Made by a program: the position numbers and the translations under genes
Assembly (NCBI GenBank): GCA_017847725.1
Contig: JAGAXW010000029.1
Coordinates: forward strand, 1 to 33,667
Direction: 5' to 3'
DNA length: 33,667 bases
Origin: Prevotella sp.
GTDB taxonomy: Bacteria; Bacteroidota; Bacteroidia; Bacteroidales; Bacteroidaceae
Shown here: positions 194 through 16,130 of the stretch, one piece after another
Layout of the letters: each line of letters starts with the position of its first letter
How positions within the stretch are numbered: the stretch's first letter is position 1
Notes under the pieces: model-generated
Seen by the model: the letters and a program-made list of their open reading frames with translations, nothing else
Told to the model about the DNA's origin: nothing
Databases searched by the model: none

Positions 194-209
194 CTTGACA
201 TACGTCAAG
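194..209. repeat. inverted repeat between divergent promoters
   Basis: CTTGAC-ATAC-GTCAAG is a perfect 6-bp inverted repeat lying between the leftward stable-RNA promoter and the rightward argR promoter. It could be an operator or a small hairpin; nothing in the sequence decides this. The rest of 147-339 is AT-rich and shows no gene. Confidence 0.3.
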
Positions 210-339
210 CCTTCATCTACATATACCTTATATTATATATGCGTGCGCGAAAGCAGAAACAATATGTATGCCATTACACCACAACCATAGGCGCTATCTC
301 TAAATAATGTTATACTTAGCATAAAAAGAGGCTTGGAAA

Positions 340-371
340 TTTGGTGATATGCACTTTTTTGTATAATTTTG
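340..371 (+). promoter_or_regulatory. promoter of argR operon
   Basis: TTTG (340-343) and TAATTTTG (364-371) are separated by 20 bp, a canonical Bacteroidetes promoter. Transcription would start near 378, giving a leader of about 20 nt before the argR ATG at 399. I saw no convincing ARG box by eye. Confidence 0.7.
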
Positions 372-398
372 CGCCCGATTTCGCATAAATATACCGCA

Positions 399-875: not shown

Positions 876-888
876 AAAAAGACCAAAA

Positions 889-1485: not shown

Positions 1486-1506
1486 AACAACAAAAACATA
1501 ACAAAT

Positions 1507-2706
1507 ATGGCAAACAAGAAAGTAGTAGTAGCCTTCAGTGGTGGATTGGACACCAGCTACACCGTGATGAAACTAACCCAGGACGGCTGGGACGTATACG
1601 CAGCATGCGCCAACACCGGCGGATTCAGCGACGAACAGTTGAAGACCAACGAAGAGAATGCCTACAAGCTGGGCGCCAAGGCCTATGTGACACTCGACGT
1701 GACACAGGAGTATTACGAGAAGTCGCTGAAATACATGATATTCGGCAACGTGTTGCGCAACAACTGCTACCCCATTTCCGTTTCCTCCGAGCGCATTTTC
1801 CAGGCCATTGCCATCGCACGCTATGCCAAGGAGATTGGTGCCGACGCCATCGCCCACGGCTCGACAGGAGCCGGCAACGACCAGATACGCTTCGACATGA
1901 CCTTCCTCGTGATGGCTCCCGGCGTAGAAATCATCACCCTGACACGCGACAAGAAACTGACGCGTAAGGAAGAGGTCGACTACCTGAACGAGCATGGATT
2001 CACGGCCGACTTCACCAAGCTGAAATACAGCTACAACGTTGGCATCTGGGGCACCAGCATCTGCGGAGGCGAACTGCTCGACCCCACGCAGGGACTCCCC
2101 GAAGAGGCTTACCTGAAGCACGTCACCGCCCAGGCAGACTCGCTGCTGAAGATTGAGTTCGAGAAAGGTGAGATAGTCGGTGTGAACGGCGAGAAATTCT
2201 CCGACCGCGTGAAGGCCATCCAGAAGATTGAAGAGATTGGTGCCTCGTACGCCATTGGCCGCGATGCCAACGTGGGCGACACCATCATAGGCATCAAGGG
2301 GCGTGTAGGTTTCGAGGCCGCAGCCCCTAAGCTCATCATCGAGGCCCACCGCCTGCTGGAGAAGTCGACCCTCTCCAAGTGGCAGCAGTACTGGAAGGAC
2401 CAAGTAGCCAACTGGTACGGCATGTTCCTGCACGAGAGCCAGTATCTGGAGCCCGTCATGCCCGACATCGAGGCCATGCTCACGTCCAGCCAGCGCAACG
2501 TGACAGGTACCGCCATCCTGAAGCTGCGCCCCTACGGATTTGAGACCGTGGGTGTTGACTCTGCCAACGACCTGACCAAGTCGAAGCTGGGCGAATATGG
2601 CGAGACGCAGACGGGCTGGACAGCCGACGAGGCCAAGGGCTTCATCAAGGTATCGAGCACGCCCCTGCGCGTCTACTACGGAATCCACAAAGACGAGAAG
2701 AGATGA
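1507..2706 (+). CDS. argG: argininosuccinate synthase
   Basis: A 399-residue argininosuccinate synthase, full length. It joins citrulline and aspartate using ATP. The N-terminal PP-loop ATP site reads AFSGGLDTSY (9-18). The middle of the protein carries the family's AHGSTGAGNDQIRFD nucleotide and citrulline-binding run. It follows the acyltransferase gene by 21 bp, and its stop codon overlaps the argC start by 4 bp (ATGA), so translation of the two is probably coupled. No broken or missing motif was noticed. The partner enzyme argininosuccinate lyase (argH) is not in the window. Confidence 0.96.
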   Translation: MANKKVVVAFSGGLDTSYTVMKLTQDGWDVYAACANTGGFSDEQLKTNEENAYKLGAKAYVTLDVTQEYYEKSLKYMIFGNVLRNNCYPISVSSERIFQAIAIARYAKEIGADAIAHGSTGAGNDQIRFDMTFLVMAPGVEIITLTRDKKLTRKEEVDYLNEHGFTADFTKLKYSYNVGIWGTSICGGELLDPTQGLPEEAYLKHVTAQADSLLKIEFEKGEIVGVNGEKFSDRVKAIQKIEEIGASYAIGRDANVGDTIIGIKGRVGFEAAAPKLIIEAHRLLEKSTLSKWQQYWKDQVANWYGMFLHESQYLEPVMPDIEAMLTSSQRNVTGTAILKLRPYGFETVGVDSANDLTKSKLGEYGETQTGWTADEAKGFIKVSSTPLRVYYGIHKDEKR

Positions 2707-3668
2707 TCAGAGTAGGAATCCTTGGGGCAGCAGGCTATACGGGCGGTGAGCTCATCCGCCTGCTGCTCAACCACCCCGAGGCAGAGATTGTCTTTGCCAA
2801 CTCCGAGAGCAACGCAGGCAATCTGGTCAGCGACGTGCATGAGGGTCTCATCGGCGACACCACCCTGCAGTTTACCAACCAGATGCCCTTTGAGCAGGTT
2901 GACGTGGTATTCTTCTGTTTCGGACACGGCAAGAGCGAGCAGTTCCTGAAGGAGCACACCATCCCTGCCAACGTCAAGATTATCGACCTGGCGCAGGACT
3001 TCCGCATCAAGGGCGACCACGACTATGTCTATGGTTTGCCCGAGACGCATAAGAATATCATTGCCGGTTGTCAGCATCTCGCCAATCCCGGCTGCTTTGC
3101 CACCTGTATTCAGCTGGCCATGCTACCCGCCCTGAAGGCCGGTATCATCAGCGGCGATATTCATGTGAACGGTATTACGGGCAGCACCGGCGCCGGCCAG
3201 AAGCCGGGTGCCACCACCCATTTCTCATGGCGCAACGACAACTGTTCCGTCTACAAGACCTTCACCCACCAGCATCTGTTAGAGATCAACCAAACCGTGC
3301 AGGAGCTGGCTCCTGGCTATGCGGGACGTGTACTGTTCATTCCCCAGCGCGGGTGTTTTGCCAGGGGAATTTTCGTGACGGCCTACGCTAAATGCGACAA
3401 GTCGTTAGAAGAGGTGCAGCAAATCTACGCCGACTATTACAAGGATGCCGCCTTTACCCATTTCGTGACCAAGAGTCCCGATATGAAGCAGGTGGTCAAT
3501 ACCAACAAGGCAGTGGTGTATGTAGAGAAATTCGAAGACCAGCTCCTGATGATTTCTTGCATCGACAACCTGCTGAAGGGTGCTGTAGGTCAGGCTGTAC
3601 AAAATATGAACCTAATGTTTGGCATTGACGAGAAGGCCGGACTGATGCTGAAGGCCTCCGCATTCTAA
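2703..3668 (+). CDS. argC: N-acyl-gamma-glutamyl-phosphate reductase
   Basis: A 321-residue ArgC that reduces N-acylglutamyl phosphate to the semialdehyde with NADPH. The Rossmann start GILGAAGYTGGE (5-16) binds the nucleotide, and the catalytic cysteine is Cys131 in ANPGCFAT. Given the rest of the pathway, the substrate is probably the N-succinyl form. It overlaps argG by 4 bp. In related genomes, as I recall them, argD follows directly; here about 11 kb of other DNA intervenes. The last 61 codons recur in diverged form at 13540-13725 without the rest of the gene, which marks argC as the edge of an inserted or rearranged segment. The gene itself is intact. Confidence 0.95.
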   Translation: MIRVGILGAAGYTGGELIRLLLNHPEAEIVFANSESNAGNLVSDVHEGLIGDTTLQFTNQMPFEQVDVVFFCFGHGKSEQFLKEHTIPANVKIIDLAQDFRIKGDHDYVYGLPETHKNIIAGCQHLANPGCFATCIQLAMLPALKAGIISGDIHVNGITGSTGAGQKPGATTHFSWRNDNCSVYKTFTHQHLLEINQTVQELAPGYAGRVLFIPQRGCFARGIFVTAYAKCDKSLEEVQQIYADYYKDAAFTHFVTKSPDMKQVVNTNKAVVYVEKFEDQLLMISCIDNLLKGAVGQAVQNMNLMFGIDEKAGLMLKASAF

Positions 3669-3710
3669 GGCATCAAAAGCTCCACATTCTAAACATTACA
3701 GCGGAAAACC

Positions 3711-3749
3711 ACTGACAATTTCTGAATTGTTAGTCGTTTTTCGTTTTTT
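3711..3749 (+). terminator. possible argC operon terminator
   Basis: ACTGACAATT (3711-3720) pairs with AATTGTTAGT (3725-3734) around a TCTG loop, followed by T-rich sequence. The right arm overlaps the first half-site of the presumed regulator operator (3727-3735), so one stretch may serve both purposes. The matching region at 10950 does not form this hairpin. Confidence 0.45.
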
Positions 3750-3783
3750 GTAAGTCTTTTTTTGCTACTATTTTCTATCTTTG
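3727..3783 (+). promoter_or_regulatory. operator (21-bp direct repeat) and promoter of the Kelch-AraC operon
   Basis: TTGTTAGTC (3727-3735) and TTGTAAGTC (3748-3756) form a direct repeat with exactly 21 bp start to start, two helical turns, as expected for an AraC-type dimer site. The -7 element TATCTTTG is at 3776-3783. No TTTG lies at the standard 19-20 bp distance, which fits an activator-dependent promoter. The same arrangement occurs at 10956-11013. Binding by the adjacent regulator is inferred. Confidence 0.6.
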
Positions 3784-3788
3784 CAACG

Positions 3789-5474
3789 ATGAACACCTAT
3801 GATCATCGCATATTGACAGCAATTCTCAGCGTTCTGTTTCCCCTCATGACGCATGCGGTTCCGACAAACGATGAGGCTACGACCTATCGACAAGCGAAGA
3901 TACAGGTCGAGCAATTGCCATCGTTGCAGGTTCCGCGCAGCGGTCACGCCACCCTTTATTTAAATGGTGAGCTCACCGTCATCGGCGGTCACACATCCGG
4001 TTTCATCCCCACCCCCACTGCCGAGTATTACAAGGACGGAGAATGGCACCTGATGCAGACGGTCTATGCGCACGACGGCGGTCTCACCATTCCATTGTCT
4101 TCAGGCAAGGCACTGATAGCAGGAGGTTTTGAGAAGCATCTCGGCATCGGTCAGACCTTTGTCGTGGAGATGTACGATCCCGTGCAACACAGCTTCACCG
4201 GTTTCGGCTGTCTGGACAAGAAGCGCGTATCAGCATCCGGCATTGAACTGGACAGCAGTCTGGTATATATCACTGGCAATTGGTACCACGATGACGGCAT
4301 TGAGCGTTTCGACGGAGTGGAGACATTCTCGCCCGTCAAGGATGTCACTGAGGGTCGCTACCGTCCCTATCTACTCCGTATCGCACCTGACGACTTCCTC
4401 ATCTTCGGCTGTCTCGACACAATCGGCCAACCGCTACACAGCGATATTGTCGACTGTCTTCAAGGCGACACGCTCCATATCCCCCTGTTGAAAGAATGGC
4501 AACCCCTTTTCTTCGACTTCGGACATTTCAGCGACAACAGCTTTATCGGTAACATCGACAAGGGCATCTACGCCTATCTGATACCTGTGAAGAACGACGA
4601 TGGACAGGTTGCCATCGCCCTTGTCGAGGGCACTCGTTTCTCCCTGTTGCCCACCACCAGTCCTATTCCCATGAAAAGCCAGTGGGGCGATATCCGCTAT
4701 TACTCGCCCATCATCGTTGACCATCACGCCAAGCGCGGTTATATGATGGGTATAGACAAGGACTGCCGACAATATATCCTGGCCATCGAGTACAACAAGC
4801 GCATCGACCAGGGTGTACCCCTCACTCTATACTACACCGCCCCCTTGCCAGACGTTGGCAGTCTGCCCGTGCTGACTCCCGAGGGTAACATCGTGATGGC
4901 TGGCGGTGTGAATTGGACTACCAACAACAACTACTCACCCAGCAATGGCGTCTATCTGTTCCATGTGAGTCCCACCAGTGCGGCAGACAACGACCAAGCT
5001 CCATTTTGGGTCTGGCTTCAAGTAGTCTTGCTGCTACTCATCATTTCCCTGACAGGTTTGTTCATCTATACGAGACGTCAGCAACGTCAGGCGAAGGAAA
5101 AAGCCGAGCACCTTGCGACAGTTGTAGACTCCAACGAGCTACTCATGCAGCGCATCTGTCTGGTGATGGAACAGCAGAAGCTCTTCCTGCAAAGCAATCT
5201 CCAGCTCTCAGATGTGGCCAACCTGTTAAATACCAACAAGCGATACATCTCCGACTGCATCAAGGCGACTCGTGGATGTACCTTCAACTATTTCGTCAAC
5301 AGGTACCGCATCGACTATGCCAAGCGACTCATCCAAGGTCAGCCAGACATTAAGATTGCCGAGGTATACTATAAGTCGGGCTTTGCCAACGAGACCTCCT
5401 TCTACCGTACCTTCAAGACCATGACAGGTATGACTCCCAAGGAGTGGATGGTAAAAACAATGGAAATAAAGTGA
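3789..5474 (+). CDS. membrane-spanning one-component regulator: periplasmic Kelch-like sensor, TM helix, AraC DNA-binding domain
   Basis: From the ATG at 3789 the product has 561 residues; an in-frame TTG at 3762 lies upstream of the -7 element and was rejected. A signal sequence or N-terminal helix (about 6-25) is followed by about 370 residues with glycine-pair blades (VIGG, IAGG, VMAGG), typical of Kelch or galactose-oxidase-like propellers. One strong transmembrane helix spans about 406-428, then a basic stretch RRQQRQ. The C-terminal 100 residues are an AraC/XylS domain with two helix-turn-helices (about 472-492 and 522-545). No histidine kinase or receiver domain is present, unlike Bacteroides hybrid two-component sensors. 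It is predicted to sense an envelope ligand and activate the genes behind it (36 bp gap to the next). I recall no characterised member with this layout. Confidence 0.85.
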   Translation: MNTYDHRILTAILSVLFPLMTHAVPTNDEATTYRQAKIQVEQLPSLQVPRSGHATLYLNGELTVIGGHTSGFIPTPTAEYYKDGEWHLMQTVYAHDGGLTIPLSSGKALIAGGFEKHLGIGQTFVVEMYDPVQHSFTGFGCLDKKRVSASGIELDSSLVYITGNWYHDDGIERFDGVETFSPVKDVTEGRYRPYLLRIAPDDFLIFGCLDTIGQPLHSDIVDCLQGDTLHIPLLKEWQPLFFDFGHFSDNSFIGNIDKGIYAYLIPVKNDDGQVAIALVEGTRFSLLPTTSPIPMKSQWGDIRYYSPIIVDHHAKRGYMMGIDKDCRQYILAIEYNKRIDQGVPLTLYYTAPLPDVGSLPVLTPEGNIVMAGGVNWTTNNNYSPSNGVYLFHVSPTSAADNDQAPFWVWLQVVLLLLIISLTGLFIYTRRQQRQAKEKAEHLATVVDSNELLMQRICLVMEQQKLFLQSNLQLSDVANLLNTNKRYISDCIKATRGCTFNYFVNRYRIDYAKRLIQGQPDIKIAEVYYKSGFANETSFYRTFKTMTGMTPKEWMVKTMEIK

Positions 5475-5510
5475 TTATGAAATAATTATTCACGTATAAA
5501 TAATAAAGGT

Positions 5511-6521
5511 ATGAAAAAAAGACTGTTTTTCCTGGTTGCTCTGATGGCAGCCTTCATGAGTGTTAACGCAGCTACCGACCGCTTGATGGCAACGCTGCAG
5601 AAAGGTGACAATGTGGATGTGTTCTATGGTATAAATGCCTTTATGCAAGCCATGGAAAAAGTGAGGGCCGAAGAGGGGGATGCCACCATTACCCTGTCGG
5701 AAGGTGAGTTCTATACTGGTAATAACGCCAACTTCAACAACATCAAGAACCTGAAGATACAGGGAGCCGGCTATGGCCTTGGTCTGACATTCAATTCCTC
5801 CTATGCCAATGTTTGTTTCACACTCAATGGTGACGCAGAGTCCATTGAGTTCGATGGAATAAACTTTGGCGGATATCTTTATATATATGGAAATATCAAG
5901 AACTGTACTTTTAGACGATGTAAAATCTCAAATATATATATTCAACCCAATAGTGACACAAAGAGTGAGAACGTAACAATTGACCAATGCCGAATCCGGT
6001 ATTTGAATATTGGACAAGAGAGCAAAAACATGGTCATTTCCAACTCTGCTATAGATCAACTCCTCGGCGGTTCTCAGGAATCCAATGTCCAGGTGGAGCA
6101 TTGTTTCATCAGATGGCTGGAACTAGGTAGCAACAATCCCACTTTTCCCAACTGCCGCAATTGTATTGTCCGAGAAGTGCGTGGCTCAAGTGCCGAAGGT
6201 GCCATCTTGTTCAACTCCCTTTATTACAATAAATCTTCCAGTGATCCTATATTGGCAACTTGCCGGCAGGCCGACTTCATTAGTAATCCCAACATGTTTG
6301 ACTGGGAAAAGGAATGTAAACTGACCGACGAGCAGATTGCTGAGTATGCCGATGTATGCACTGACGGAACGCAGGTAGGTATTTACGGTGGTATTGGATT
6401 CTCCGAGGATCCCACCAACCCGAAGATTACCTCTACGGATATTAGTCGTGAGGCCACTTACGACGAGGCCAACGACAAATACACACTCAATGTGAAGTTT
6501 ACCGTTGAGACACAAGAGTAA
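5511..6521 (+). CDS. secreted right-handed beta-helix protein (pair 1)
   Basis: A 336-residue exported protein: a Lys-rich start and hydrophobic core end at a likely cleavage after VNA (about residue 20). Residues 60-260 are a run of short strands with repeating Asn, Cys and aliphatic positions (for example NVTIDQCRIRYLNI, NMVISNSAIDQLL), the pattern of a parallel beta-helix such as the pectin-lyase fold. It shares its start (LQ-x-GDN ... FYG-x-NA, ITLS-x-G-x-F) and end (DGTQ-x-GI-x-GG) with the protein at 11072-12103. No catalytic motif of a lyase or hydrolase was recognised, and it lacks the C-terminal sorting-like domain of its neighbours. It lies 21 bp before the repeat-protein gene. Role unknown; a surface scaffold or glycan-binding protein is an inference. 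Confidence 0.7.
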   Translation: MKKRLFFLVALMAAFMSVNAATDRLMATLQKGDNVDVFYGINAFMQAMEKVRAEEGDATITLSEGEFYTGNNANFNNIKNLKIQGAGYGLGLTFNSSYANVCFTLNGDAESIEFDGINFGGYLYIYGNIKNCTFRRCKISNIYIQPNSDTKSENVTIDQCRIRYLNIGQESKNMVISNSAIDQLLGGSQESNVQVEHCFIRWLELGSNNPTFPNCRNCIVREVRGSSAEGAILFNSLYYNKSSSDPILATCRQADFISNPNMFDWEKECKLTDEQIAEYADVCTDGTQVGIYGGIGFSEDPTNPKITSTDISREATYDEANDKYTLNVKFTVETQE

Positions 6522-6542
6522 CCCATCATCATATCAGAGACT

Positions 6543-8114
6543 ATGATCAAGTATATCCTTACGCCTCTGCTGCTGGTTCTCTGTACCGTTGTCTGCGGAC
6601 AAGGCATCACCCATTACCAGTACTGGTTCGATGGTGATGTGGACTCACGCGTAACAACAGCCACCAGCGGCAATGTTGATGTCCAGGTTGACGTGACGGC
6701 ACTGCCCGACGGCGTACACACCATCCACTACAGGGCTGTTGACGACCAAGGACGCTGGACGGCTCCAGAGTGCTACTACTTTATTAAGCATAAGCCACTG
6801 AAACAGACCCAGCGTACACCAGCCACACTGACCAAGTACGAGTACTGGTTCGACAACGATATTGCTAACCGCATCGTAACGGAAAACACCAACGGTATCG
6901 TTGACATCCAGAGCGACATCACGACACTCACTGACGGCGTGCACACCATCAACTATCGCATGGCTGACAGCTACGGCAGTTGGACACCGCCTGAGAGCTA
7001 CTATTTTATTAAGCATAAGCCACTGAATCAGGCCCAGCGTACACCAGCCACGCTGACCAAGTACGAGTACTGGTTCGACAACGATATTGCCAACCGCATC
7101 GTGACGGAAAACACCAGCGGTATCGTTGATATCCAGACCGACATCACGGCCCTCACTGACGGCGTGCACACCATCAACTACCGTATGGCCGATAGCTATG
7201 GCAGTTGGACACCGCCTGAGAGTTACTATTTCATCAAGTACAAACTGCGCCCCGCCGTGGTGGATAACAGGAAGATCAGGGGTTACCGCTACTGGTTCAA
7301 TGATGCCGAATCGCAGGCTGAGTATGTGGAACTATCGGAACCCGTGAACCCCTACGAGATGAACGAGGTACTTACCGTCAACAATCTGGTGACCACTGTG
7401 ACACGCGACAACTACGTATTGACCGAGGACGACAAGATAGCCGTCAGAAACAAGCTGAATATCGCCTTCCGCAACACAGCCAACGACTGGAGCCAGATAC
7501 AGGTGGAGCCGTTCAACGTGACTTTGCCGGCTGGCGATCATGACCTGACGGGACTCATCCTGAACCCCAATGCCGACAAGGGTCTTGATGACTGGACAAC
7601 GTCCTCCTGCTCAACGTCAAGCAGCGAGCACTGGAGCGGTGAGTCTAACCCTTACTTCACGATGGGCTACTCATCTAGCAGTTCGTGGACGGCCACGATG
7701 AGTCAGGACATGCCGGCACTGCCTACCGGACTCTACTCGCTGACATTCTATGCCCGTGCCTCGGCAGATGCTACGGTAAGCGTCACCGTGGGGAACAAGA
7801 CCATCCAAGTTCCTGGCATCGGCAATACCGGTGGTGAGGGATTCGGATGGCGTCCGTTCACCATATCGTTCGAGGGCAACGGTCAGCCGTTCTCTATTCT
7901 CTTTGAGGCATCAGCCACCAGCAGCAACCAGTGGGCACATCTCGATGCGCTGACGCTGACAACAACCATCGAGGACGAGACCACAGGCATCAGTAATGCT
8001 ATCGTGGAAAAGAAGTCTGCTGACAACTGGTACACGCTGGACGGTAAGAAGGTGGCTCAGCCGTCGAAGAAAGGTATCTACATCAATAACGGAAATAAAG
8101 TAATCATCAAATAA
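6543..8114 (+). CDS. secreted YWFD-repeat surface protein (pair 1)
   Basis: A 523-residue exported protein with a signal peptide (about 1-20). Three tandem units of 75 residues follow, each opening with Y-x-YWFD-x-D and closing with G-x-W-T and YYFIK; a fourth degenerate unit starts near 243 (YRYWFND). Units two and three are nearly identical in DNA. Residues about 335-475 look like a jelly-roll carbohydrate-binding or lectin-like domain. The last 45 residues (YTLDGKKV ... GIYI-x-NGNKV-IIK) are a C-terminal sorting or anchoring-like domain common in Prevotella surface proteins. The repeats resemble small beta-sandwiches. Its paralogue is 12135-13343. Function unknown; adhesion or glycan binding is inferred from architecture and operon. 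Confidence 0.7.
   Translation: MIKYILTPLLLVLCTVVCGQGITHYQYWFDGDVDSRVTTATSGNVDVQVDVTALPDGVHTIHYRAVDDQGRWTAPECYYFIKHKPLKQTQRTPATLTKYEYWFDNDIANRIVTENTNGIVDIQSDITTLTDGVHTINYRMADSYGSWTPPESYYFIKHKPLNQAQRTPATLTKYEYWFDNDIANRIVTENTSGIVDIQTDITALTDGVHTINYRMADSYGSWTPPESYYFIKYKLRPAVVDNRKIRGYRYWFNDAESQAEYVELSEPVNPYEMNEVLTVNNLVTTVTRDNYVLTEDDKIAVRNKLNIAFRNTANDWSQIQVEPFNVTLPAGDHDLTGLILNPNADKGLDDWTTSSCSTSSSEHWSGESNPYFTMGYSSSSSWTATMSQDMPALPTGLYSLTFYARASADATVSVTVGNKTIQVPGIGNTGGEGFGWRPFTISFEGNGQPFSILFEASATSSNQWAHLDALTLTTTIEDETTGISNAIVEKKSADNWYTLDGKKVAQPSKKGIYINNGNKVIIK
6606..7280 (+). repeat. 225-bp tandem coding repeats
   Basis: Three in-frame units of 225 bp encode the YWFD repeats. The units beginning at 6831 and 7056 differ at few positions, mostly silent, while the first unit is more diverged. 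This fits recent duplication or gene conversion of the last unit and would allow copy-number change by slippage or recombination. Confidence 0.8.
7977..8084 (+). repeat. C-terminal domain coding repeat, copy 1
   Basis: About 108 bp encoding TTGISNAIVEKKSADNWYTL and the residues after it are almost identical to 10700-10807 at the end of the next gene. The bodies of the two proteins are unrelated, so the shared end is a reused sorting-domain cassette. Confidence 0.85.
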
Positions 8115-8140
8115 TCAAAAAACTAAAGTCATTCGCTATC

Positions 8141-10837
8141 ATGAAACAAAGATTGATAACATCACTCATCGTACTTGCGGCGACAGCCACCGGAGCGTGG
8201 GCTATCAAGGACAAGACTGTCGAGATTGGTATCGAACAGGGTGGCACGGAGCTGACAACAATACTCCCCATCTATACCTATCGAACCTATCACATGTCAC
8301 AGCAAATCTACACCTCCGAGGAAATTGGCATTCCGCAGGGTGGAAAGCTGAAAAGTATCTCCCTATATTATGACCACAGCAATCAAAGCTATGCTCTCGA
8401 GCGTTCGACGAACCTAACCATCAAGCTGGCAAACACCGAAGTGGAGTCGTTACAAGGTGACTATCCTAAAACAACCCAATCAAAGAAATGGGTTACTGGC
8501 GGCACCATGTATACGTTTAGCAACTTTTCGTTACCCGCCACGTCGGGCTGGATAACAATCACTTTCAACAATCCTTTTACCTATAACGGCAAGAACCTGG
8601 CTATAATGGTCTATAGCGAGATGAAAAATGACTATCAGTATGGTAGATTCCGCTCTTACAACTGCGGGAAGTACCAGTCATTGTACGTCAACTATGACAT
8701 CGAGTGGCAAGACAACAACTATAGTGCCACATCACACACTTTTAATCCGAATACTCCTACCAAATATACCGGTCGTCCCGTGACTTCAAAGAACCAGATA
8801 AAAATGGTCATCACACCTAATCCCGGTCTGTCGTTCTCTGATGTCGTTGCCCCAGAGCAGGTGAAGGGTGGTCAGCCGTTTACCATATCAGCCAATGTGA
8901 CGAATATCGACGAGGACGAGGCCTCACCCGAGACGACTGTTTATGTCGAGGCGAGCGCCAACGGTAGCACATGGCAAACCGCCGGCCAGCAATCGCTGTC
9001 AGCTATAGACGGAGGAGCCACTACACAAGTTAGCATTGAAAACGCCAAAGCAGCGCTGGCCGAACCCGCTCCAGAAAACATCATGCTGCGACTGCGCGCC
9101 GACGCCTTTAGCAAGTCGTTCTACAGCACCGTCAAAAGTGTGCCATACGTAGGCTGTAGTCATGTCGCTGGCGATCCTGTACAAGAGAATGTTGTAGATC
9201 CTAAATGTACTGAGGGAGGAAGCTACGACTTAGTGAAATATTGCACCTTGTGTGGCATAGAACTTTCGCGTGAGAAGATGAAAACTGACCCACTCGGTCA
9301 CAATTGGGGAAGTCCAACTTACTCATGGGCTGAAGACAACAGTCAGGTGACGGCATCACGCACTTGCGGTCGAGATGCATCGCACGTGGATTCAGAAACC
9401 GTACAAACCACCTCGGAGGTGACAAAAGAGCAGACTGCCACTGAGCCAGGCGAAATAACCTACACCGCCACATTTACCAAGTCTGCTTTCACCAAGCAGA
9501 CGAAGGTGATCACTTTATATATTGAAAATGAGGTAGCATGTGATTATTTTTATTGGAGTAAGAATGGAAATACATACACCGCCAGTGGAGAATATACATA
9601 CGATAGTGGTGAGGAAATTTATAAACTGAACCTGACCATCCACAACTCCACCGGCGAAATCTGGGAACGCAAGGTGTTTATCGGCCAGCACTTCAACGAA
9701 TATCCTTTCGAGTTTGATGTGACCGCCGACACCAAACTGACGTGGGAAGAAGTCACCACCAATGCATCAGGCTGTGACAATGTCATCACACTGAACCTGA
9801 CCATTGTAAATCCTGAAGATTACTACTACGACGGTAAGCTGGGCAATGAATATTCGCCTGAAAAGACTGAGTTTAAGCTGTGGGATCCGACAGCCACTTC
9901 AGTCAAGGTTAATCGTTATGCTACAGGAACGGACGGTGAGGCAGACGCACAGAACTACGGCTCTACAGAAATGAACAAACTGATGGACGGTAGCAATTGG
10001 ACGGGCGTGTGGACATGTACGATTGCTGGTGATCTGAAAGGAAGCTACTACACCTACAACGTCAACGAAGAGGAGATTGCTGACCCGTGGTCGCAGGCCG
10101 TAGGCTTCGACCGCAAGCGCTCAATGGTCTTCGACAGTGGGGATGTAGAACCTAGCGGATGGGACAGCGACTACCACGTATTCTATGAGCCAGGCAAAAA
10201 GATTGAGTACATCGACGTGCCGACGTTCTCTGAAGATCCGATGTGCGGTGTCAGTGATAGTCATCGCGGCAAGTATCTGGCTCTTACTGAGGACAACACG
10301 ACATACGAGAATGCTGGTTTGGAGCCGACGTGCATGAGTAAACTGAAGGCAGAAGGCTGCAAGGCCGTCATCGTGACGATGACCGACCCACAGATGGTGG
10401 TCGATCCCTACTCCACCAACCCGTACGACGGCACGACGGTCATCAACGAAGTACAGCAGGCTATCATGGCCGTCCACAAGACTTTCGGCATGTCGTTCTT
10501 CGTACGTTTCGACTTCTCAACCATACCTGTCAATGAGGTATTCCGTCGGAGATACATCATGGAAACCATTCAATACTGGGTGGAGACGTACCATGTTGAC
10601 GGCATCGTGCTGGCTAGCGACATCGATACCGAGACGAGAGGTCTCATCCGCGACCTGCTCGATGGCTATGATTCACGCATAGTCCTCACTACCGACGAGG
10701 AGACCACAGGTATCAGTAATGCTATCGTGGAAAAGAAGTCTGCCGACAACTGGTATACGCTGGACGGTAAGAAGGTGGCTCAGCCGTCGAAGAAAGGCAT
10801 CTACATTAGCGATGGACGGAAGATACTGATCAAGTAA
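8141..10837 (+). CDS. large secreted multidomain protein with a degenerate type I pullulanase (CBM48-GH13) module
   Basis: 898 residues with a signal peptide (cleavage near 20, GAWA). Modules in order: a Bacteroidetes adhesin-like beta-sandwich (about 30-230), an Ig-like domain (232-335), a Cys/His-rich stretch with C-x2-C and GHNWG (338-445), a beta domain (450-560), a CBM48-like domain of pullulanases (about 561-690: YDGKLGNEYSPEKTEFKLW, then KGSYYTYNVN and DPWSQAVG), a shortened GH13 barrel (about 690-850) and the sorting-like C-terminus (853-898). In the barrel NPYDGT (about 759-764) and YHVDG (about 817-821) match pullulanases, but the FRFD motif reads IVLA, so the nucleophile Asp is Ala825, and the DVVYNH loop is absent. 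It is probably a non-catalytic glycan-binding pseudoenzyme. It is the last gene of the regulator's operon (26 bp gap). Confidence 0.75.
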   Translation: MKQRLITSLIVLAATATGAWAIKDKTVEIGIEQGGTELTTILPIYTYRTYHMSQQIYTSEEIGIPQGGKLKSISLYYDHSNQSYALERSTNLTIKLANTEVESLQGDYPKTTQSKKWVTGGTMYTFSNFSLPATSGWITITFNNPFTYNGKNLAIMVYSEMKNDYQYGRFRSYNCGKYQSLYVNYDIEWQDNNYSATSHTFNPNTPTKYTGRPVTSKNQIKMVITPNPGLSFSDVVAPEQVKGGQPFTISANVTNIDEDEASPETTVYVEASANGSTWQTAGQQSLSAIDGGATTQVSIENAKAALAEPAPENIMLRLRADAFSKSFYSTVKSVPYVGCSHVAGDPVQENVVDPKCTEGGSYDLVKYCTLCGIELSREKMKTDPLGHNWGSPTYSWAEDNSQVTASRTCGRDASHVDSETVQTTSEVTKEQTATEPGEITYTATFTKSAFTKQTKVITLYIENEVACDYFYWSKNGNTYTASGEYTYDSGEEIYKLNLTIHNSTGEIWERKVFIGQHFNEYPFEFDVTADTKLTWEEVTTNASGCDNVITLNLTIVNPEDYYYDGKLGNEYSPEKTEFKLWDPTATSVKVNRYATGTDGEADAQNYGSTEMNKLMDGSNWTGVWTCTIAGDLKGSYYTYNVNEEEIADPWSQAVGFDRKRSMVFDSGDVEPSGWDSDYHVFYEPGKKIEYIDVPTFSEDPMCGVSDSHRGKYLALTEDNTTYENAGLEPTCMSKLKAEGCKAVIVTMTDPQMVVDPYSTNPYDGTTVINEVQQAIMAVHKTFGMSFFVRFDFSTIPVNEVFRRRYIMETIQYWVETYHVDGIVLASDIDTETRGLIRDLLDGYDSRIVLTTDEETTGISNAIVEKKSADNWYTLDGKKVAQPSKKGIYISDGRKILIK
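10700..10807 (+). repeat. C-terminal domain coding repeat, copy 2
   Basis: Near-identical to 7977-8084. It encodes the sorting-like end of the pseudo-pullulanase protein. Confidence 0.85.
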
Positions 10838-10939
10838 GACAAGTTTCTATTGACTCTCAAAGCGCCTGAATATGCATTCTCATAACAGAGATGTATATTC
10901 AGGCGTTTTATTTGTGAGTGTAAATCCAATACTCTTTTT
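10814..10939 (+). repeat. gene-end and terminator direct repeat, copy 1
   Basis: About 125 bp covering the last codons (GRKILIK), the stop, the terminator hairpin and a following CCAATACTCTTTT recur at 13320-13443 after the second operon, with few changes. Confidence 0.85.
10863..10910 (+). terminator. terminator of the Kelch-AraC operon
   Basis: CGCCTGAATATGCAT (10863-10877) pairs with ATGTATATTCAGGCG (10891-10905) with a single G-T wobble around a 13-nt loop, followed by TTTTA. It ends the four-gene operon. Confidence 0.85.
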
Positions 10940-10955
10940 ACTTACATTTTCTGCA

Positions 10956-11013
10956 TTGTTAGTCGATTTTCTGATTTTGTAAGTACCTTTTCCAATATAT
11001 ACTTCTATCTTTG
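10956..11013 (+). promoter_or_regulatory. operator (21-bp direct repeat) and promoter of the second secreted-protein operon
   Basis: TTGTTAGTC (10956-10964) and TTGTAAGTA (10977-10985) repeat at 21 bp, and the -7 element TATCTTTG is at 11006-11013, in the same layout and within 1 bp of the same spacing as 3727-3783. Shared bases extend beyond the half-sites. The standard -33 TTTG is again not at the usual distance. The Kelch-AraC regulator is the obvious candidate to act here. A leader of about 55 nt precedes the ATG at 11072. Confidence 0.6.
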
Positions 11014-11071
11014 CGAAGTAAACCTACAGAAAAAGTGTTCATCAAATAATTAACATCTAAACTGTAAAATT

Positions 11072-12103
11072 ATGAAGAAAACTATTCTTACCTTGGCAAT
11101 GCTGTGTTGTGCCATCGTGGGCAACGCACAAGTGACTGACGAACAAAGTGCCATCCTGCAGGTTGGTGACAACGCCCAGATTTTCTACGGGACCAACGCA
11201 CTGGTAGAAGCATTGGAGGCTGCACCAGACCGTGGTGCCACCATCACCCTATCCTCTGGAACTTTCGCAGGCGGCACCATGACCAAATGCGTGAATATCT
11301 ATGGTGCCGGCTGGGTAGAGCAAAAGATTGCCAGAGACAACAACAATCCTTCTGACAACAGTATCCTGCCGACGATTATCAGCTCCAGACTTACCATCAG
11401 CATTCCAGAAGAACTGACGGCTCCTCACAACATCCATATTGAAGGGATCGGATTCCCTAACTATGGTACTGGATTTGTCTTTGATAAGGCGATAGACGGA
11501 TTGGAGATAATGAAATGTATGGCCAATACCGGATACATAGCTCTCGAATTTTTGGCAGAGAATAAGAACGTTGTTGTCACCCAGTGTCATTTTGCTGGGG
11601 CTACAGGCTTAGACGATGTTCTTTTCCAAAATTGCTATTTAGAGAATTCTTCCGCTTATCATTGCCGTAATATAAACACAAGCAATGTTGTGATTAATCA
11701 TTGTATCATAAGTGGCTGGTACAGTTTTGGAAACGATGTCAAAGCACTTTTCACCAACTGTATGATATACAGCGGTTATGGAATTTCTCCCGCCAGCACA
11801 GCCCGTAATTGTATGTTTATGGTATCAAACATTACCAATGTCGGCAGTGAAGACAATATTTTCAGTGTGGATTATAATCAGATTTTCGAAGATGCTACCG
11901 GTATCGGCTACACCGATGCCCGCACCTTCAAGATCAAAGACGAACTGGTGGATACCTACATGGGTGGCGACGGTACGCAGATTGGTATCAATGGCGGTAA
12001 CTACAACTGGAACAAGACGCCTCATACTCCATTGGTTACAGACTTGAAACTGGCGATTGACGGAACGAACCTGAAGGTGACCTACAATGCTGAGACACGA
12101 TAA
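11072..12103 (+). CDS. secreted right-handed beta-helix protein (pair 2)
   Basis: A 343-residue exported protein with a signal peptide ending near GNAQ (about residue 20). It matches the pair 1 protein (5511-6521) at the start (LQVGDNAQIFYGTNA, ATITLSSGTF, NIYGAGW) and near the end (DGTQIGINGG), with a freely diverged helix body between, rich in Asn, Cys and short strands (for example NVVVTQCHFAGAT, NVVINHCIISG). The body is AT-richer than the flanking ends. It is the first gene of the second operon, 31 bp before its repeat-protein partner. No catalytic residues were recognised. The variable body between conserved ends suggests that the helix is the ligand-facing part, which is inference. Confidence 0.7.
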   Translation: MKKTILTLAMLCCAIVGNAQVTDEQSAILQVGDNAQIFYGTNALVEALEAAPDRGATITLSSGTFAGGTMTKCVNIYGAGWVEQKIARDNNNPSDNSILPTIISSRLTISIPEELTAPHNIHIEGIGFPNYGTGFVFDKAIDGLEIMKCMANTGYIALEFLAENKNVVVTQCHFAGATGLDDVLFQNCYLENSSAYHCRNINTSNVVINHCIISGWYSFGNDVKALFTNCMIYSGYGISPASTARNCMFMVSNITNVGSEDNIFSVDYNQIFEDATGIGYTDARTFKIKDELVDTYMGGDGTQIGINGGNYNWNKTPHTPLVTDLKLAIDGTNLKVTYNAETR

Positions 12104-12134
12104 GTAAGACATCACTCCATAAATACGCTAACAG

Positions 12135-13343
12135 ATGATGAAAGCAATCAAAGGAATGCTGTTAGCCGTGGTGATGATTTTCAGCACTGCTGCTGCAGCA
12201 CAAACAACCATCGCAGGAGGCGAGTACTGGATAGACGGTGCAATCAATGCACGTCAGCCGTTATCATCGGGTGCTTCCATTGACATCAGTGCCCTCCAGC
12301 CCGGTCTGCACACACTCACCGTGCGTGTGAAAGACAGCAACGGACTGTGGAGCAACCAGATGGCGCGTATCTTCTTCGTGTCACCTTCGGGACGTACCGA
12401 CGCCACCAGCGTGACAGCCTGCGAATACTGGATAGACGGTGTGAAGAAGCCAGAATATACGACGCTCAACATACAGACTATTGATATCAGCGACCTCAAG
12501 CCTGGTCTGCACAAGATACTTGTGAGGGCGAAAGACAACCTTGGTATCTGGAGCAACCAAATGGCGCGTATCTTCGTCGTGTCACCTTCGGGACGTACCG
12601 ACGCCACCAGCGTGACAGCCTGCGAATACTGGCTGGACGGTGTGAAGAAAGCAGAGTATAAAACGCTCAACACACAGGTCATCGACATCAGCGGTCTCAC
12701 GCCAGGTCTGCATAAAGTACTTATTCGTGTGAAGGACGACCTCGGTATCTGGAGCAATCAGATGAGCCGTACGTTCTTCGTCTCCCCAGGCGCTCAGTCT
12801 GATGCGACAACCATTACGAAACGGGAGTTCTGGTTGGACGGTAATATCGTTCACCGGCAAACCATTGACGACACCCCCGCTGTCATTGATATCAGTGTGC
12901 TGGATGCGGGTCTTCACATGATGACCATGCGTGTACAGGACAACAAGGGCATCTGGAGCAACCAGATAGCTCGCACCTTCTACGTGGCACCGCTACCTGC
13001 GCCTGCCGCCACGCTCACCAAGTACATGTATTGGATAGACAGCGACCAGGAGCATGCCGTGACTGGTGATATCACGGACGACAGCGGACAGCTCGTCATC
13101 GATCTGGAGCCGCTGGCGATCGACGAGGGTGACCACACCTTGACATTGGCTATTCTGGACTCAAAGGGTGTATGGAGCAACATCGTCAAGGAAACATTCA
13201 CCGTCATCGCATCAGGTATCCACAGTATTCCTGCCGACATGAAGACCGGTCAGTGGTTCGACCTCTCTGGTAAGAAGCTCAACGGTGCACCCAGTCGTCC
13301 GGGTATTTACATCCGCGACGGACGGAAGGTACTGATCAAGTAA
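12135..13343 (+). CDS. secreted YWID-repeat surface protein (pair 2)
   Basis: 402 residues with a signal peptide ending near AAAAQ (about residue 23); the ATG at 12138 is an equal alternative start. Five tandem units of about 67 residues follow, each with EYWIDG or a variant near the start, IDIS-x-L-x-PGLH in the middle and GIWSNQ near the end, then the sorting-like C-terminus (WFDLSGKKL ... GIYI-x-DGRKV-LIK). Units two and three share an almost identical 90-bp stretch at 12361-12449 and 12562-12650. It is the paralogue of 6543-8114 but lacks the lectin-like domain. The end of the gene and its terminator are a repeat of 10814-10939. Function unknown; the pairing with a beta-helix protein is conserved in both operons. 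Confidence 0.7.
   Translation: MMKAIKGMLLAVVMIFSTAAAAQTTIAGGEYWIDGAINARQPLSSGASIDISALQPGLHTLTVRVKDSNGLWSNQMARIFFVSPSGRTDATSVTACEYWIDGVKKPEYTTLNIQTIDISDLKPGLHKILVRAKDNLGIWSNQMARIFVVSPSGRTDATSVTACEYWLDGVKKAEYKTLNTQVIDISGLTPGLHKVLIRVKDDLGIWSNQMSRTFFVSPGAQSDATTITKREFWLDGNIVHRQTIDDTPAVIDISVLDAGLHMMTMRVQDNKGIWSNQIARTFYVAPLPAPAATLTKYMYWIDSDQEHAVTGDITDDSGQLVIDLEPLAIDEGDHTLTLAILDSKGVWSNIVKETFTVIASGIHSIPADMKTGQWFDLSGKKLNGAPSRPGIYIRDGRKVLIK
12361..12650 (+). repeat. 201-bp tandem coding repeats (most similar pair)
   Basis: The stretches starting at 12361 and 12562 are nearly identical over about 90 bp and lie exactly 201 bp (67 codons) apart inside the YWID-repeat gene. Recent unit duplication or gene conversion explains this. 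Confidence 0.75.
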
Positions 13344-13443
13344 GACAAGTTTCTATTGACTCTCAAGCGCCTGAATATGCATTCTCATAACAGAGATGTA
13401 TATTCAGGCGTTTTATTGATGGGTGTTCGACCAATACTCTTTT
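13320..13443 (+). repeat. gene-end and terminator direct repeat, copy 2
   Basis: Second copy of the segment at 10814-10939, again covering the last codons, the stop and the terminator. Together they bracket the second operon as a roughly 2.5-kb unit, as if it arose by, or could be lost by, recombination between them. Confidence 0.85.
13368..13415 (+). terminator. terminator of the second secreted-protein operon
   Basis: Same hairpin as at 10863: CGCCTGAATATGCAT (13368-13382) pairs with ATGTATATTCAGGCG (13396-13410), followed by TTTTA. Confidence 0.85.
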
Positions 13444-13455
13444 ATATTGACAGAT

Positions 13456-13725
13456 ATGAGCGGTGGAAAGATTCATGCCCTTAAGTTCTACACCACCGCC
13501 TCCGATGATTATACCACGCTCAGCGATGTGGATGTCTATATGAAGCAGGTGGTGAACACCAACAAGGCACTGGTACACGTAGAGAAGTACGGCAACAAGC
13601 TCCTCGTCACCTCCTGCATCGACAACCTGCTGAAAGGAGCCGTCGGACAAGCTGTGCAGAACATGAACCTCATGTTTAACATCGACGAGACGGCAGGACT
13701 TAGGCTGAAGGCTTCTGCATTTTAA
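13456..13725 (+). pseudogene. chimeric remnant: adhesin-module scrap fused in frame to the argC 3' end
   Basis: The last 61 codons (13540-13725) align without gaps to the argC C-terminus (3483-3668), about 50 of 61 residues identical and with many silent base changes. The catalytic Cys and Rossmann parts of ArgC are missing. The preceding codons ([12 protein letters not shown] ... DVDVY) look like part of the Bacteroidetes adhesin beta-sandwich found at the N-terminus of the 8141-10837 protein. The two parts meet at ATATGAAGCAGGTGGT, shared exactly with argC at 3481-3496. There is no promoter or signal peptide, and a terminator lies just upstream, so it is probably not expressed. It marks the right edge of the inserted block. 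Confidence 0.75.
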
Positions 13726-13737
13726 GTATTTTCCCCG

Positions 13738-13794
13738 AAAGTTGTACAACTTCGGCGCCAGACTGTACGGATTTGCGCCAAAGTTGTACAACTT
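13738..13794. repeat. paired 14-bp perfect palindromes
   Basis: AAGTTGTACAACTT, its own reverse complement, occurs at 13739-13752 and 13781-13794, 42 bp apart, directly after the argC remnant. GGCGCC and GCGCC blocks lie between them. It could be a protein-binding or recombination site, or a short palindromic repeat element. No gene was seen in 13726-13990. Confidence 0.6.
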
Positions 13795-13887
13795 TTCGCG
13801 CGCCCGCTTGTTTTTTCAGTTCGTTTAGCATGAAAAACGACTGCAACCCCAATGGGAAAAGACACACCCCAAGAAGGACAGAAGAAC

Positions 13888-13910
13888 AGAAGGACATTTT
13901 GTCCTTCTTT
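13888..13910. terminator. short hairpin, possible terminator
   Basis: AGAAGGACA (13888-13896) and TGTCCTTCT (13900-13908) form a perfect 9-bp stem with a 3-nt loop, followed by a few T residues. It lies between the argC remnant and the kinase-like gene. Confidence 0.4.
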
Positions 13911-13990
13911 AAGGCAAAAATCGTGTAACCAACTGATATCTCCGTCATTACACAGATTCCCAAAATGTCCCACTTGCTCACAGGGCTCAT

Positions 13991-14022
13991 ACATCACAGG
14001 GGGTATGCCCCTCCTGTGATGT
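13991..14022 (-). terminator. hairpin downstream of the kinase-like gene
   Basis: ACATCACAGG (13991-14000) pairs perfectly with CCTGTGATGT (14013-14022), with GGGTATGCCCCT as loop. It begins 5 bp past the end of the minus-strand gene, where a terminator would be expected, though a T run is lacking. A related sequence lies on the other side of the gene at 14801-14826. Confidence 0.45.
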
Positions 14023-14027
14023 ACGAA

Positions 14028-14669
14028 TTACTCAATGTACATCAGAATCTGATTCGCAATCTCCTCCTCAGTCCTTGCTGAAGAATTGAAGACGAGGTCG
14101 TAGTTACGGGTTTCGTAGCGGGAAGTGCCAGTATATCGCTTCACGTAATTCTCGCGCATCTTATCCACCTTCTCGATAATCTTGCGCGCTTCGTCTTCAG
14201 AGATATTCTTTTTGGCGGCGACACGTGCCACACGGTAAGCCATTGGTGCCTGAATGAGAACGCTTAAATGGTTCGGATGGTTTCTGAACACGAAGAAACT
14301 GCAACGGCCGGCAATGACGCACGACTCCTCTTCAGCAATCTCATGCAGAATCTCCGTCTCTGCCTTAAACATGTTTTCAGTAGTCAGCACATCAGGCTCC
14401 TTACCATATTTCGTAAGACAGGATCTGCTGTCAACCAATCCAGCGCCGATACCTGCGACACGCTTGAAGCCTTCCCACCATCTGATCTCGCGTCCCTTCA
14501 TCTTCTCAATCTCTTCGGCTGTGAGATTATATCTCTCCACTAAAGCCTTGATTAAGGCCTTGTCGTAGAAAGACACGCCCAGCTTGTGGGCCAAAATTTC
14601 ACCAATGGTGCGACCACCACTACCTAACTCACGATTAATCGAAATGACAAACTTCTCTTTCCTATTCAT
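14028..14669 (-). CDS. cytidylate kinase-like P-loop protein
   Basis: From the ATG at 14669 the product has 213 residues. The P-loop-like start reads ISINRELGSGGRTIGE, the form seen in the cytidylate-kinase-like family common in Bacteroidetes and Firmicutes, not canonical Cmk. It is followed by LAHKLGVSFYDKALI, and later by VIAGRCSFF and a lid-like stretch RVAARVAAKKN... with DEARKIIEKVDKMRENY. It probably phosphorylates a nucleotide or small molecule; the substrate is unknown. A longer in-frame start (14702) exists but would begin upstream of the palindrome at 14670. It is transcribed against its neighbours from its own promoter and interrupts the arginine genes. Family confidence is good, function confidence low. 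Confidence 0.8.
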   Translation of the reverse strand: MNRKEKFVISINRELGSGGRTIGEILAHKLGVSFYDKALIKALVERYNLTAEEIEKMKGREIRWWEGFKRVAGIGAGLVDSRSCLTKYGKEPDVLTTENMFKAETEILHEIAEEESCVIAGRCSFFVFRNHPNHLSVLIQAPMAYRVARVAAKKNISEDEARKIIEKVDKMRENYVKRYTGTSRYETRNYDLVFNSSARTEEEIANQILMYIE

Positions 14670-14729
14670 AATACTATAGTATTGTTTTGTTTGTACTTGC
14701 ACATCCTGCCATCGAATTGATAATTCGAT
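14670..14729 (-). promoter_or_regulatory. two palindromes in the leader of the kinase-like gene
   Basis: AATACTATAGTATT (14670-14683) is a perfect palindrome directly before the start codon. ATCGAATT-GAT-AATTCGAT (14711-14729) is a perfect inverted repeat around the expected transcription start. Either could be an operator. Confidence 0.45.
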
Positions 14730-15002: not shown

Positions 15003-16130
15003 ATGAAACTATTCGACGTTTATCCTTTGTTCGACGTGAACATCGTCAGGGGCGAAGGTTGTAAAGTATGGGACGACAAGGGTCAAGAATATCTCGATCT
15101 GTATGGCGGTCATGCCGTCATCAGCATCGGGCACTCACACCCCCATTATATTAAAAAGGTTACGGAGCAACTGAACCGCATCGGGTTCTACTCCAATTCC
15201 GTCATCAACAAGCTGCAGGTAGAACTGGCTGAGCGGCTGGGACGCATCAGTGGCTATGACGACTACCAGCTGTTCCTTATCAACAGCGGTGCCGAGGCTA
15301 ACGAGAATGCACTGAAGCTGGCCTCGTTCACCAACGGACGTACCCGTGTGCTCAGTGCCGAGAAGGCATTCCACGGCCGTACCTCGCTGGCTGTCGAGGT
15401 AACCAACAATCCAAAGATTATTGCACCCATCAACGATAACGGCCATGTGACCTATCTGCCGCTGAACGACCTTGCGGCATGGGAGCAGGAACTGCAGAAG
15501 GGCGACGTCTGTGCCGTCATACTGGAGTGTATCCAGGGCGTTGGCGGTATCCAGATGGCCACGAAGGCGTTTGCGCAGGGACTGGCCGCTGCCTGCAAGA
15601 AATACGGTACGGTGCTCATCTGCGACGAGATACAGTGCGGCTACGGACGCAGCGGACGGTTCTTTGCCCACCAGTGGCTTGACATCCGCCCCGACATCAT
15701 CACCGTAGCCAAGGGCATCGCCAACGGATTCCCCATGGGCGGCGTACTCATCGGTCCCGACTTCAAGCCTGTCTACGGTCAGCTGGGCACCACCTTTGGC
15801 GGCAACCACCTGGCCTGTGCTGCCGCACTGGCCGTACTCGACGTGTTCGAGGACGAGCAGCTGGTGGAGAACGCCCACGAGGTGGGCACCTATCTGATAC
15901 AGCAGCTCAAGGCTGTTGACAGTCCCCACATCAAGGATGTGCGTGGCCGCGGTCTCATGATAGGCATCGACCTGGACATTCCCCACAAGGAGGTGCGCGT
16001 GCCGCTGATACACCAGGAGCACTGCTTCACGGGCTGTGCCGGCACCAACATCCTGCGCCTGCTGCCCCCCCTCTGTCTGACCAAGGAGGAAGCCGACAAT
16101 TTTGTTGAACGTCTAAAACGCGTATTATGA
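15003..16130 (+). CDS. argD: N-acylornithine aminotransferase
   Basis: 375 residues, class III PLP aminotransferase, the usual ArgD length. The PLP lysine is Lys237 in TVAKGIANGFPMGG, and ICDEIQCGYGRSGRFFAHQ precedes it. It converts N-acylglutamate semialdehyde to N-acylornithine; the N-succinyl form is expected here. The frame stays open upstream to 14895, but that stretch contains the promoter at 14942-14972, so the ATG at 15003, 30 nt after the -7 element, is the start. The stop overlaps the proC start (ATGA). It heads an eight-gene operon and is separated from argC by the inserted block and the kinase-like gene. Confidence 0.94.
   Translation: MKLFDVYPLFDVNIVRGEGCKVWDDKGQEYLDLYGGHAVISIGHSHPHYIKKVTEQLNRIGFYSNSVINKLQVELAERLGRISGYDDYQLFLINSGAEANENALKLASFTNGRTRVLSAEKAFHGRTSLAVEVTNNPKIIAPINDNGHVTYLPLNDLAAWEQELQKGDVCAVILECIQGVGGIQMATKAFAQGLAAACKKYGTVLICDEIQCGYGRSGRFFAHQWLDIRPDIITVAKGIANGFPMGGVLIGPDFKPVYGQLGTTFGGNHLACAAALAVLDVFEDEQLVENAHEVGTYLIQQLKAVDSPHIKDVRGRGLMIGIDLDIPHKEVRVPLIHQEHCFTGCAGTNILRLLPPLCLTKEEADNFVERLKRVL

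What the first reader, a model, noticed from the sequence alone, without database searches (positions are those of the whole stretch)
3483..13725. A 10-kb block is bracketed by two diverged argC 3' ends
argC ends at 3668, and its last 61 codons reappear gap-free at 13540-13725 with about 50 of 61 residues the same and many silent changes. Between the copies lie only a regulator and five secreted proteins, and argD follows beyond. The divergence is too great for a fresh local duplication. It suggests that DNA carrying a foreign argC end recombined into argC, keeping an intact reading frame in front and leaving the other 3' end behind. Which copy is native is not known.
Basis: partly seen in the sequence, partly recalled or inferred. 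Interest (0 to 1): 0.8.

Follow-up and report, generated by a model that had tools for sequence, protein, structure and literature searches.

The report
Leftover argC end marks stacked insertion
Behind the arginine gene argC, this Prevotella chromosome carries a 10-kb block of probable secreted-protein genes followed by the cut-off end of a different argC, best read as the scar left when foreign DNA recombined into argC; similar scars in two related genomes suggest a recurring way of adding genes at this spot.

Summary
Intact argC ends at 3668; codons 261-321 of a second argC lie at 13540-13725 (50 of 61 residues the same, 80% nt). The ends belong to different allele types: the remnant has the usual type at 5 of 5 diagnostic residues, the intact gene a minority core (codons 115-284) seen in 8 of 120 genomes. 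Sisterhood of the two ends is rejected on a 33-row tree (AU p=0.0016), so an in-place duplication is unlikely.

In 48 of 86 other loci argC and argD lie under 200 bp apart (empty site); in 19 of 86, 3 kb or more. A kelch/AraC regulator like the one here often follows argC.

New here: the remnant is fused to a ~36-residue fragment of another cargo gene (13441-13551). Two relatives have their own scars: G022, a decayed argC end behind a kelch block; UBA2754, an argD fragment joined to an argC fragment between two kelch blocks.

Best reading: integration anchored by homology in argC and joined illegitimately at the other end. Which copy is native, and whether the incoming DNA was linear or circular, is open. 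A related block also sits behind a ribosomal operon in another genome, so such blocks are not tied to argC. Known kind of event, apparently new place.

The parts
2703..3044 (+). argC codons 1-114, not specific to either allele type; over codons 1-100 nearest to G290 (usual type)
3045..3554 (+). argC codons 115-284, minority core type shared by 8 of 120 genomes
3555..3668 (+). argC codons 285-321 and stop; allele type not resolvable
3669..3788 (+). spacer from argC to the regulator with a hairpin-like repeat; 77% nt to the same spacer in tf2-5 and RUG037
3789..5474 (+). regulator: AraC-type DNA-binding domain (HTH_18) and a weak kelch match just under Pfam's cut-off; mechanical ORF starts at 3762, the ATG at 3789 is the likelier start (by eye)
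5511..6521 (+). probable secreted protein sec1, distant relative of sec4 (26%)
6543..8114 (+). probable secreted repeat protein sec2, related to sec5 (26-31% pieces)
8141..10837 (+). probable secreted protein sec3 with CBM48 and part of a pullulanase-like region
11072..12103 (+). probable secreted protein sec4, 78% to tf2-5
12135..13343 (+). probable secreted repeat protein sec5 (Y_Y_Y domain), 82% to tf2-5 and UBA2754
13344..13443 (+). terminator-like tail, 91-92% identical to the tail behind sec3 (10838-10938); these two copies are the only ones found in the held draft genome
13441..13551 (+). fragment (about 36 codons, N-terminal part) of a large cargo gene; its 3' edge is the junction with argC
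13540..13725 (+). argC 3' remnant, codons 261-321 and stop, usual Prevotella type
14028..14702 (-). cytidylate-kinase-like gene between the remnant and argD
15003..16130 (+). argD, right flank of the hotspot

Best explanation
The argC-argD gap is a place where Prevotella chromosomes gain and exchange blocks made of a kelch/AraC regulator and secreted proteins. Here incoming DNA carrying an argC end followed by such a block paired with the resident argC (homologous side, somewhere in argC or just upstream). Its other end, inside another cargo gene, was joined to resident argC at codon 261 within a few similar bases (illegitimate side). The result is an intact, mosaic argC in front, the block in the middle and the old argC 3' end as a scar. 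Shown: two argC ends of different type, empty sites in relatives, a cargo-fragment/argC fusion, a mosaic argC core, and two further scars of the same kind in other genomes. Inferred: the crossover itself, the microhomology (the parents' own letters at the junction are unknown), linear rather than circular incoming DNA, and that the remnant is the native copy.
For: Ends of different type: remnant on the usual side of a 100/99.5 branch, sister position to the intact end rejected at p=0.0016, 5 of 5 diagnostic residues. Minority core confined to codons 115-284; its hosts are scattered on the rpoB tree (4 of 8 hosts had an rpoB match; one clade rejected, p=4.6e-7). Right junction: 13441-13551 matches large open frames in 8 of 149 other genomes, and the change to argC falls within about 11 bases that look alike in both families. 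Empty site in 48 of 86 loci. Similar scars with other junctions: G022, decayed argC end right behind a kelch block; UBA2754, argD codon 106 joined to argC codon 226 with 3 bases in common, between two different kelch blocks. Recent movement of such a block: UBA2754 and tf2-5 share sec5 at 96.3% and the sec5-argD spacer at 97.2%, while argG is 81%, argC 78% and the argD start 80%. Mobility beyond this site: in Tb.RUG.517 (L220) a related block (kelch 46%, sec4 55%, sec5 72%) stands behind what by eye is a ribosomal-protein operon. No integrase or transposase matched among the six large ORFs of the block; no tRNA there.
Against: A donor with the minority argC core followed by this block was not found: of the other seven minority-type genomes only G142 has a kelch gene behind argC, on the other strand. 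Codons 285-321 do not tell the types apart, so one crossover there with the roles reversed fits equally well. The remnant at the base of the minority group is not rejected (p=0.23). Over codons 1-100 the eight minority rows are not one clade (p=0.019), but for six of them this is not significant (p=0.13). The relatives were picked from the best hits of two searches, not at random. All three scars are in draft genomes. Small ORFs of the block were not scanned for mobile-element genes.
Confidence: 0.65

Rival explanations
1. Circular route with roles reversed: the resident already had the minority argC core; a circle carrying a usual-type argC end and the block integrated by one crossover in the conserved last codons (285-321). 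The remnant is then the donor's argC end.
For: Codons 285-321 are not type-specific, so a crossover there leaves this pattern. UBA2754, with an argD fragment joined to an argC fragment between two blocks, looks like the joint of a circle. In E. coli linear DNA can be circularised and integrated by single crossover (abstract of PMC3240628).
Against: The usual type is in 112 of 120 sampled genomes (sample not random), which makes it the likelier resident. The right border carries a cargo fragment, so the circle would have to close between a cargo gene and argC.
Confidence: 0.2
2. Old in-place tandem duplication of argC (or of argC with the block), followed by loss of most of the second copy.
For: Gives the same order of parts; two kelch regulators in a row occur behind argC in G352 and G394.
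Against: Sisterhood of the two ends rejected at p=0.0016 (p=0.20 and 0.12 in the two weaker tests); 5 of 5 diagnostic residues differ in type; among the 93 other loci scanned only G022 has a remnant; the remnant's 5' edge is a cargo gene, not argC or argG sequence.
Confidence: 0.05
3. Site-specific island that inserts at the 3' end of argC and brings its own end, as islands do at other genes.
For: Intact gene in front, displaced 3' end behind, cargo between.
Against: No integrase or transposase match among the six large ORFs. The repeats are 80% identical, longest identical run 20 bp. The three junctions lie at different argC codons (261, about 278, 226). A related block sits elsewhere in L220.
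Confidence: 0.03
4. Assembly artefact: sequences of two strains joined in the draft assembly.
For: The genome is a draft of 56 contigs, 80.6% complete; reads are not available here.
Against: No N. The junction rests on about eleven similar bases, fewer than assemblers normally need to join reads (recalled), and two other genomes show scars of the same kind.
Confidence: 0.07

Closest known systems
Homology-facilitated illegitimate recombination, HFIR (PMC3240628; outline and abstract seen)
   Same: One end joined by homology, the other illegitimately; no integrase.
   Different: Seen here only as a historical footprint in Prevotella; the incoming DNA is unknown.
Type VI effector-immunity arrays in Vibrio cholerae (PMC5361080; passages seen)
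   Same: A conserved upstream stretch anchors new modules and displaced 3' pieces pile up behind them; those authors propose an HFIR-like mechanism.
   Different: There the anchor is part of the secretion cluster and the leftover is an immunity gene; here the anchor is an arginine-synthesis gene and the leftover is a cut-off argC end.
Genomic islands at the 3' end of genes such as trmE or dusA (PMC8409611; title and start of abstract in the listing)
   Same: Cargo inserted at the end of a conserved gene that stays intact.
   Different: Those are mobilised islands with their own integrase (recalled); here no integrase was found and the junctions vary.

Membership tests
HFIR-type integration | One junction in homologous sequence | tested here: inconclusive
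   argC is mosaic (core codons 115-284 of another type), which fits, but the crossover point and its link to this block are not shown.
HFIR-type integration | Other junction without extended homology | tested here: met
   Cargo fragment fused to argC codon 261; the two families look alike over about 11 bases only.
HFIR-type integration | Linear incoming DNA | not testable with these tools
   A circle fits as well.
Site-specific island at a gene's 3' end | Integrase in the element | tested here: not met
   No such match for the six large ORFs of the block (Pfam, NCBIfam); small ORFs not scanned.
Site-specific island at a gene's 3' end | Identical attachment repeats and a fixed junction | tested here: not met
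   Repeats 80% identical, longest identical run 20 bp; three different junction codons.
In-place duplication | The two copies are sisters | tested here: not met
   AU p=0.0016 over codons 261-321, 33 rows; p=0.20 on the 121-row quick tree and 0.12 with a non-argC stretch added.
argC (TIGR01850) | Score over the curated cut-off for the intact gene | tested here: met
   290 bits against 233.6.

The most novel reading that the evidence does not exclude
argC-argD is a standing docking site across Prevotella: the conserved argC end works as a homology anchor that lets new kelch/AraC-regulated secreted-protein blocks be added in front of older ones without an integrase, so that displaced argC and argD ends record the order of arrivals. 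Related blocks use the ends of other core operons in the same way.
Probability: 0.4. Interest if true: 0.6.

Novelty: new member of a known kind. Interest (0 to 1): 0.45.

Why it matters
It gives a readable scar of how abundant gut and rumen bacteria may take up secreted-protein genes without mobile-element machinery, and names a spot (argC-argD) where this can be followed across species. It also shows that a housekeeping gene can be mosaic in its core, which matters when argC is used as a marker. In the listings of three paper searches (5 papers; 2; 10 shown of 70) I saw no title or abstract start about an argC-argD hotspot in Prevotella; these papers were not opened.

Tried and rejected
An in-place duplication was tested and rejected on codons 261-321 with a careful tree of 33 rows (8 minority rows, the remnant, and 24 of 112 usual-type rows that I chose by hand from nearest hits and block carriers). 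Earlier quick trees of 121 rows were too noisy: the sister test gave p=0.20, and one held tree scored better than the free tree. The first rpoB tree is void because seven loci were on the wrong strand; one search repeats it correctly. Extending the remnant upstream to 13465 weakened the tree because that stretch is not argC, as searches then showed; before that I took it for decayed argC.

Extra argC-end hits in G062 and G155 (second full-length frames), G279 (46% match in a 360-aa frame) and G056 (21 residues at a contig end) were set aside as not scars or not decidable. A search of 399 genomes of the family (345 with a match) was read only for genomes with two hits; those outside the genus were not followed up. 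The window has one tRNA and one Rfam match, the same tRNA-Pro, far from the block. GC was only tabulated and is not used. Lead not followed: what the block's proteins do (no structure was predicted).

Full report
Observation. The window is contig C37 of a 2.39-Mb draft genome (56 contigs, 80.6% complete). The genus is Prevotella: a held genome of the same genus code, G167, is identical over 17,001 bases to Prevotella sp. tf2-5, and G035 to the record of uncultured Prevotellaceae RUG037. argC is 2703-3668. Its last 61 codons recur at 13540-13725 with 50 of 61 residues the same and 80% nt identity. A search of the own genome gives these two and one distant 29% hit elsewhere.

Two types of argC end. 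I aligned argC from 120 genomes, the window's included; they were taken from the best hits, so they are not a random sample. Eight (G000, G037, G105, G112, G050, G142, G093, G114) share a core type that 112 lack. The remnant has the usual residue at all 5 diagnostic positions of the last 61 codons and the intact gene the minority residue at all 5. In a careful tree of 33 rows the eight stand apart at 100/99.5 with the remnant on the other side; making remnant and intact end sisters is rejected (AU p=0.0016), but putting the remnant at the base of the eight is not (p=0.23). On a noisy quick tree of 121 rows the sister test gave p=0.20, and p=0.12 when I extended the remnant upstream into a stretch that later proved not to be argC.

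The intact argC is a mosaic. By codon block the minority type is distinct only in codons 115-284 (for example 0.77 within the type against 0.52 between types in 181-215); codons 1-114 and 285-321 show no such split. Over codons 1-100 the eight do not form one clade (p=0.019; without G093 and G114 p=0.13) and G000 pairs with G290, a usual-type genome (96/88). On the rpoB tree (20 of 30 genomes had a match, among them 4 of the 8 minority hosts; bootstrap not settled) the four are not one clade (p=4.6e-7). So the core appears to move between lineages, with crossovers in the conserved ends of the gene.

The site in relatives. I mapped the stretch behind argC in 119 other loci. In 86 argD is on the stretch, same strand: 48 have under 200 bp between the genes, 10 have 200-999, 9 have 1-3 kb and 19 have 3 kb or more. 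Of 69 intervals of 300 bp or more, 18 have a homologue of this regulator on the same strand within 2.6 kb. tf2-5 and RUG037 have regulator-sec4-sec5-argD without a remnant. HMM scans of protein and DNA (523 kb; 94 of the 120 loci, window included, had 60 bp or more to scan, 33 of them without argD on the stretch) found argC ends only in the window (E=1.9e-41) and in G022 (E=5e-10).

The right border. The ORF 13423-13725 runs into the remnant from upstream. Its part 13441-13551 matches large open frames (881-1736 aa) in 8 of 149 other genomes, E from 1.1e-6 to 0.02. I read the one in G097: a 1732-aa gene, matched near its start, 4.5 kb behind argC with other genes between, no kelch regulator and no argD on that stretch. 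The change from cargo to argC falls within about 11 bases that look alike in both families (window TGAAGCAGGTG; one cargo homologue TGAAGGAAGTG; tf2-5 argC TGAAACAAGTG). The parents' own letters there are unknown, so the microhomology is inferred. The tail between sec5 and this fragment is 91-92% identical to the tail behind sec3; no third copy was found in the held draft.

Other scars. G022: argC of the usual type, a kelch regulator (53%), a probable secreted protein, and right behind its stop a decayed argC piece of about 28 codons. UBA2754, found by a scan with sec5 (6 loci; argC on 3 of them): argC, kelch, sec4, sec5, argD codons 1-106 joined to argC codons 226-321 with 3 bases in common, a second and different kelch block, then the whole argD. 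There sec5 and the spacer behind it are 96.3% and 97.2% identical to tf2-5, while argG (81%), argC (78%) and the argD start (80%) are not; the argD fragment is 90.5% like the genome's own argD. The three junctions differ, so I take them as three events. A fourth record, Tb.RUG.517 (L220), carries a related block (kelch 46%, sec4 55%, sec5 72%) with none of the arg genes on its 15.6 kb; by eye it stands behind a ribosomal-protein operon that ends with rpoA and rplQ. So such blocks are not tied to argC.

Mechanism. No integrase or transposase matched among the six large ORFs of the block and no tRNA lies there. The simplest account is integration anchored by homology at argC and joined illegitimately at the other end. 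This is the scheme proposed for type VI effector-immunity arrays in Vibrio cholerae, where a conserved upstream stretch is the anchor and displaced 3' genes pile up behind (PMC5361080, passages), and it is known from experiments as HFIR (PMC3240628, abstract). A circle integrated by one crossover in codons 285-321, with resident and donor reversed, gives the same result and cannot be excluded. The remnant shows little excess of amino-acid changes: 4 nonsynonymous to 23 synonymous against its nearest relative; in pairs with 25-35 differences its nonsynonymous share is 0.17 (40 pairs) against 0.13 for usual-type pairs (n=923, 95th percentile 0.26). So it was probably retired recently.

What the block does is not settled: an AraC-type regulator with a weak kelch match and five probable secreted proteins, one with a CBM48 and part of a pullulanase-like region, one with a Y_Y_Y domain. 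A carbohydrate-related surface role is a guess.

Verdict. A real and well-supported scar of acquisition, of a known kind, at a place that looks like a recurrent docking site.

Noticed in passing
L220 (Tb.RUG.517) 3-14361: A related kelch-sec4-sec5 block stands behind a ribosomal-protein operon (by eye: S5, SecY, Map, S4, RpoA, L17) instead of argC, so the blocks use other core-gene ends too.
   Followed up: partly
window 7965-8114 and 10688-10837; 10860-10938 and 13365-13443: sec3 looks patched together: its last 50 codons are 86% nt identical to the end of sec2, and the tail behind it is 91% identical to the tail behind sec5; its pullulanase-like region is only part of a pullulanase.
   Followed up: partly
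window 3698-3745 and 10940-11014; L048 3945-4050; L092 9615-9660: A hairpin-like repeat (GACTAACAAT..ATTGTTAGTC or close to it) stands between argC and the regulator in tf2-5, RUG037 and G022 and in a weaker form here; the stretch before sec4 is 79% identical to the tf2-5 regulator's upstream stretch. It may be a terminator or the regulator's own binding site.
   Followed up: no
genus code g30 (for example G595 C26 and C50): In another genus of the family 16 of 19 listed genomes give two or more argC-end hits; the two shown for G595 lie in full-length frames, so this genus may carry two argC genes.
   Followed up: no
argC codons 115-284 in G000, G037, G105, G112, G050, G142, G093, G114: A minority argC core in Prevotella genomes that are not one clade by rpoB (4 of 8 tested), with gene ends that do not follow the core.
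   Followed up: yes
L217 (UBA2754) 11600-11980: By eye the argC fragment is nearly identical to the genome's own argC except for short tracts, one of which matches tf2-5, as if partly overwritten by gene conversion.
   Followed up: partly
window 25413-25488: One tRNA-Pro, the only RNA gene found in the window, far from the block.
   Followed up: no
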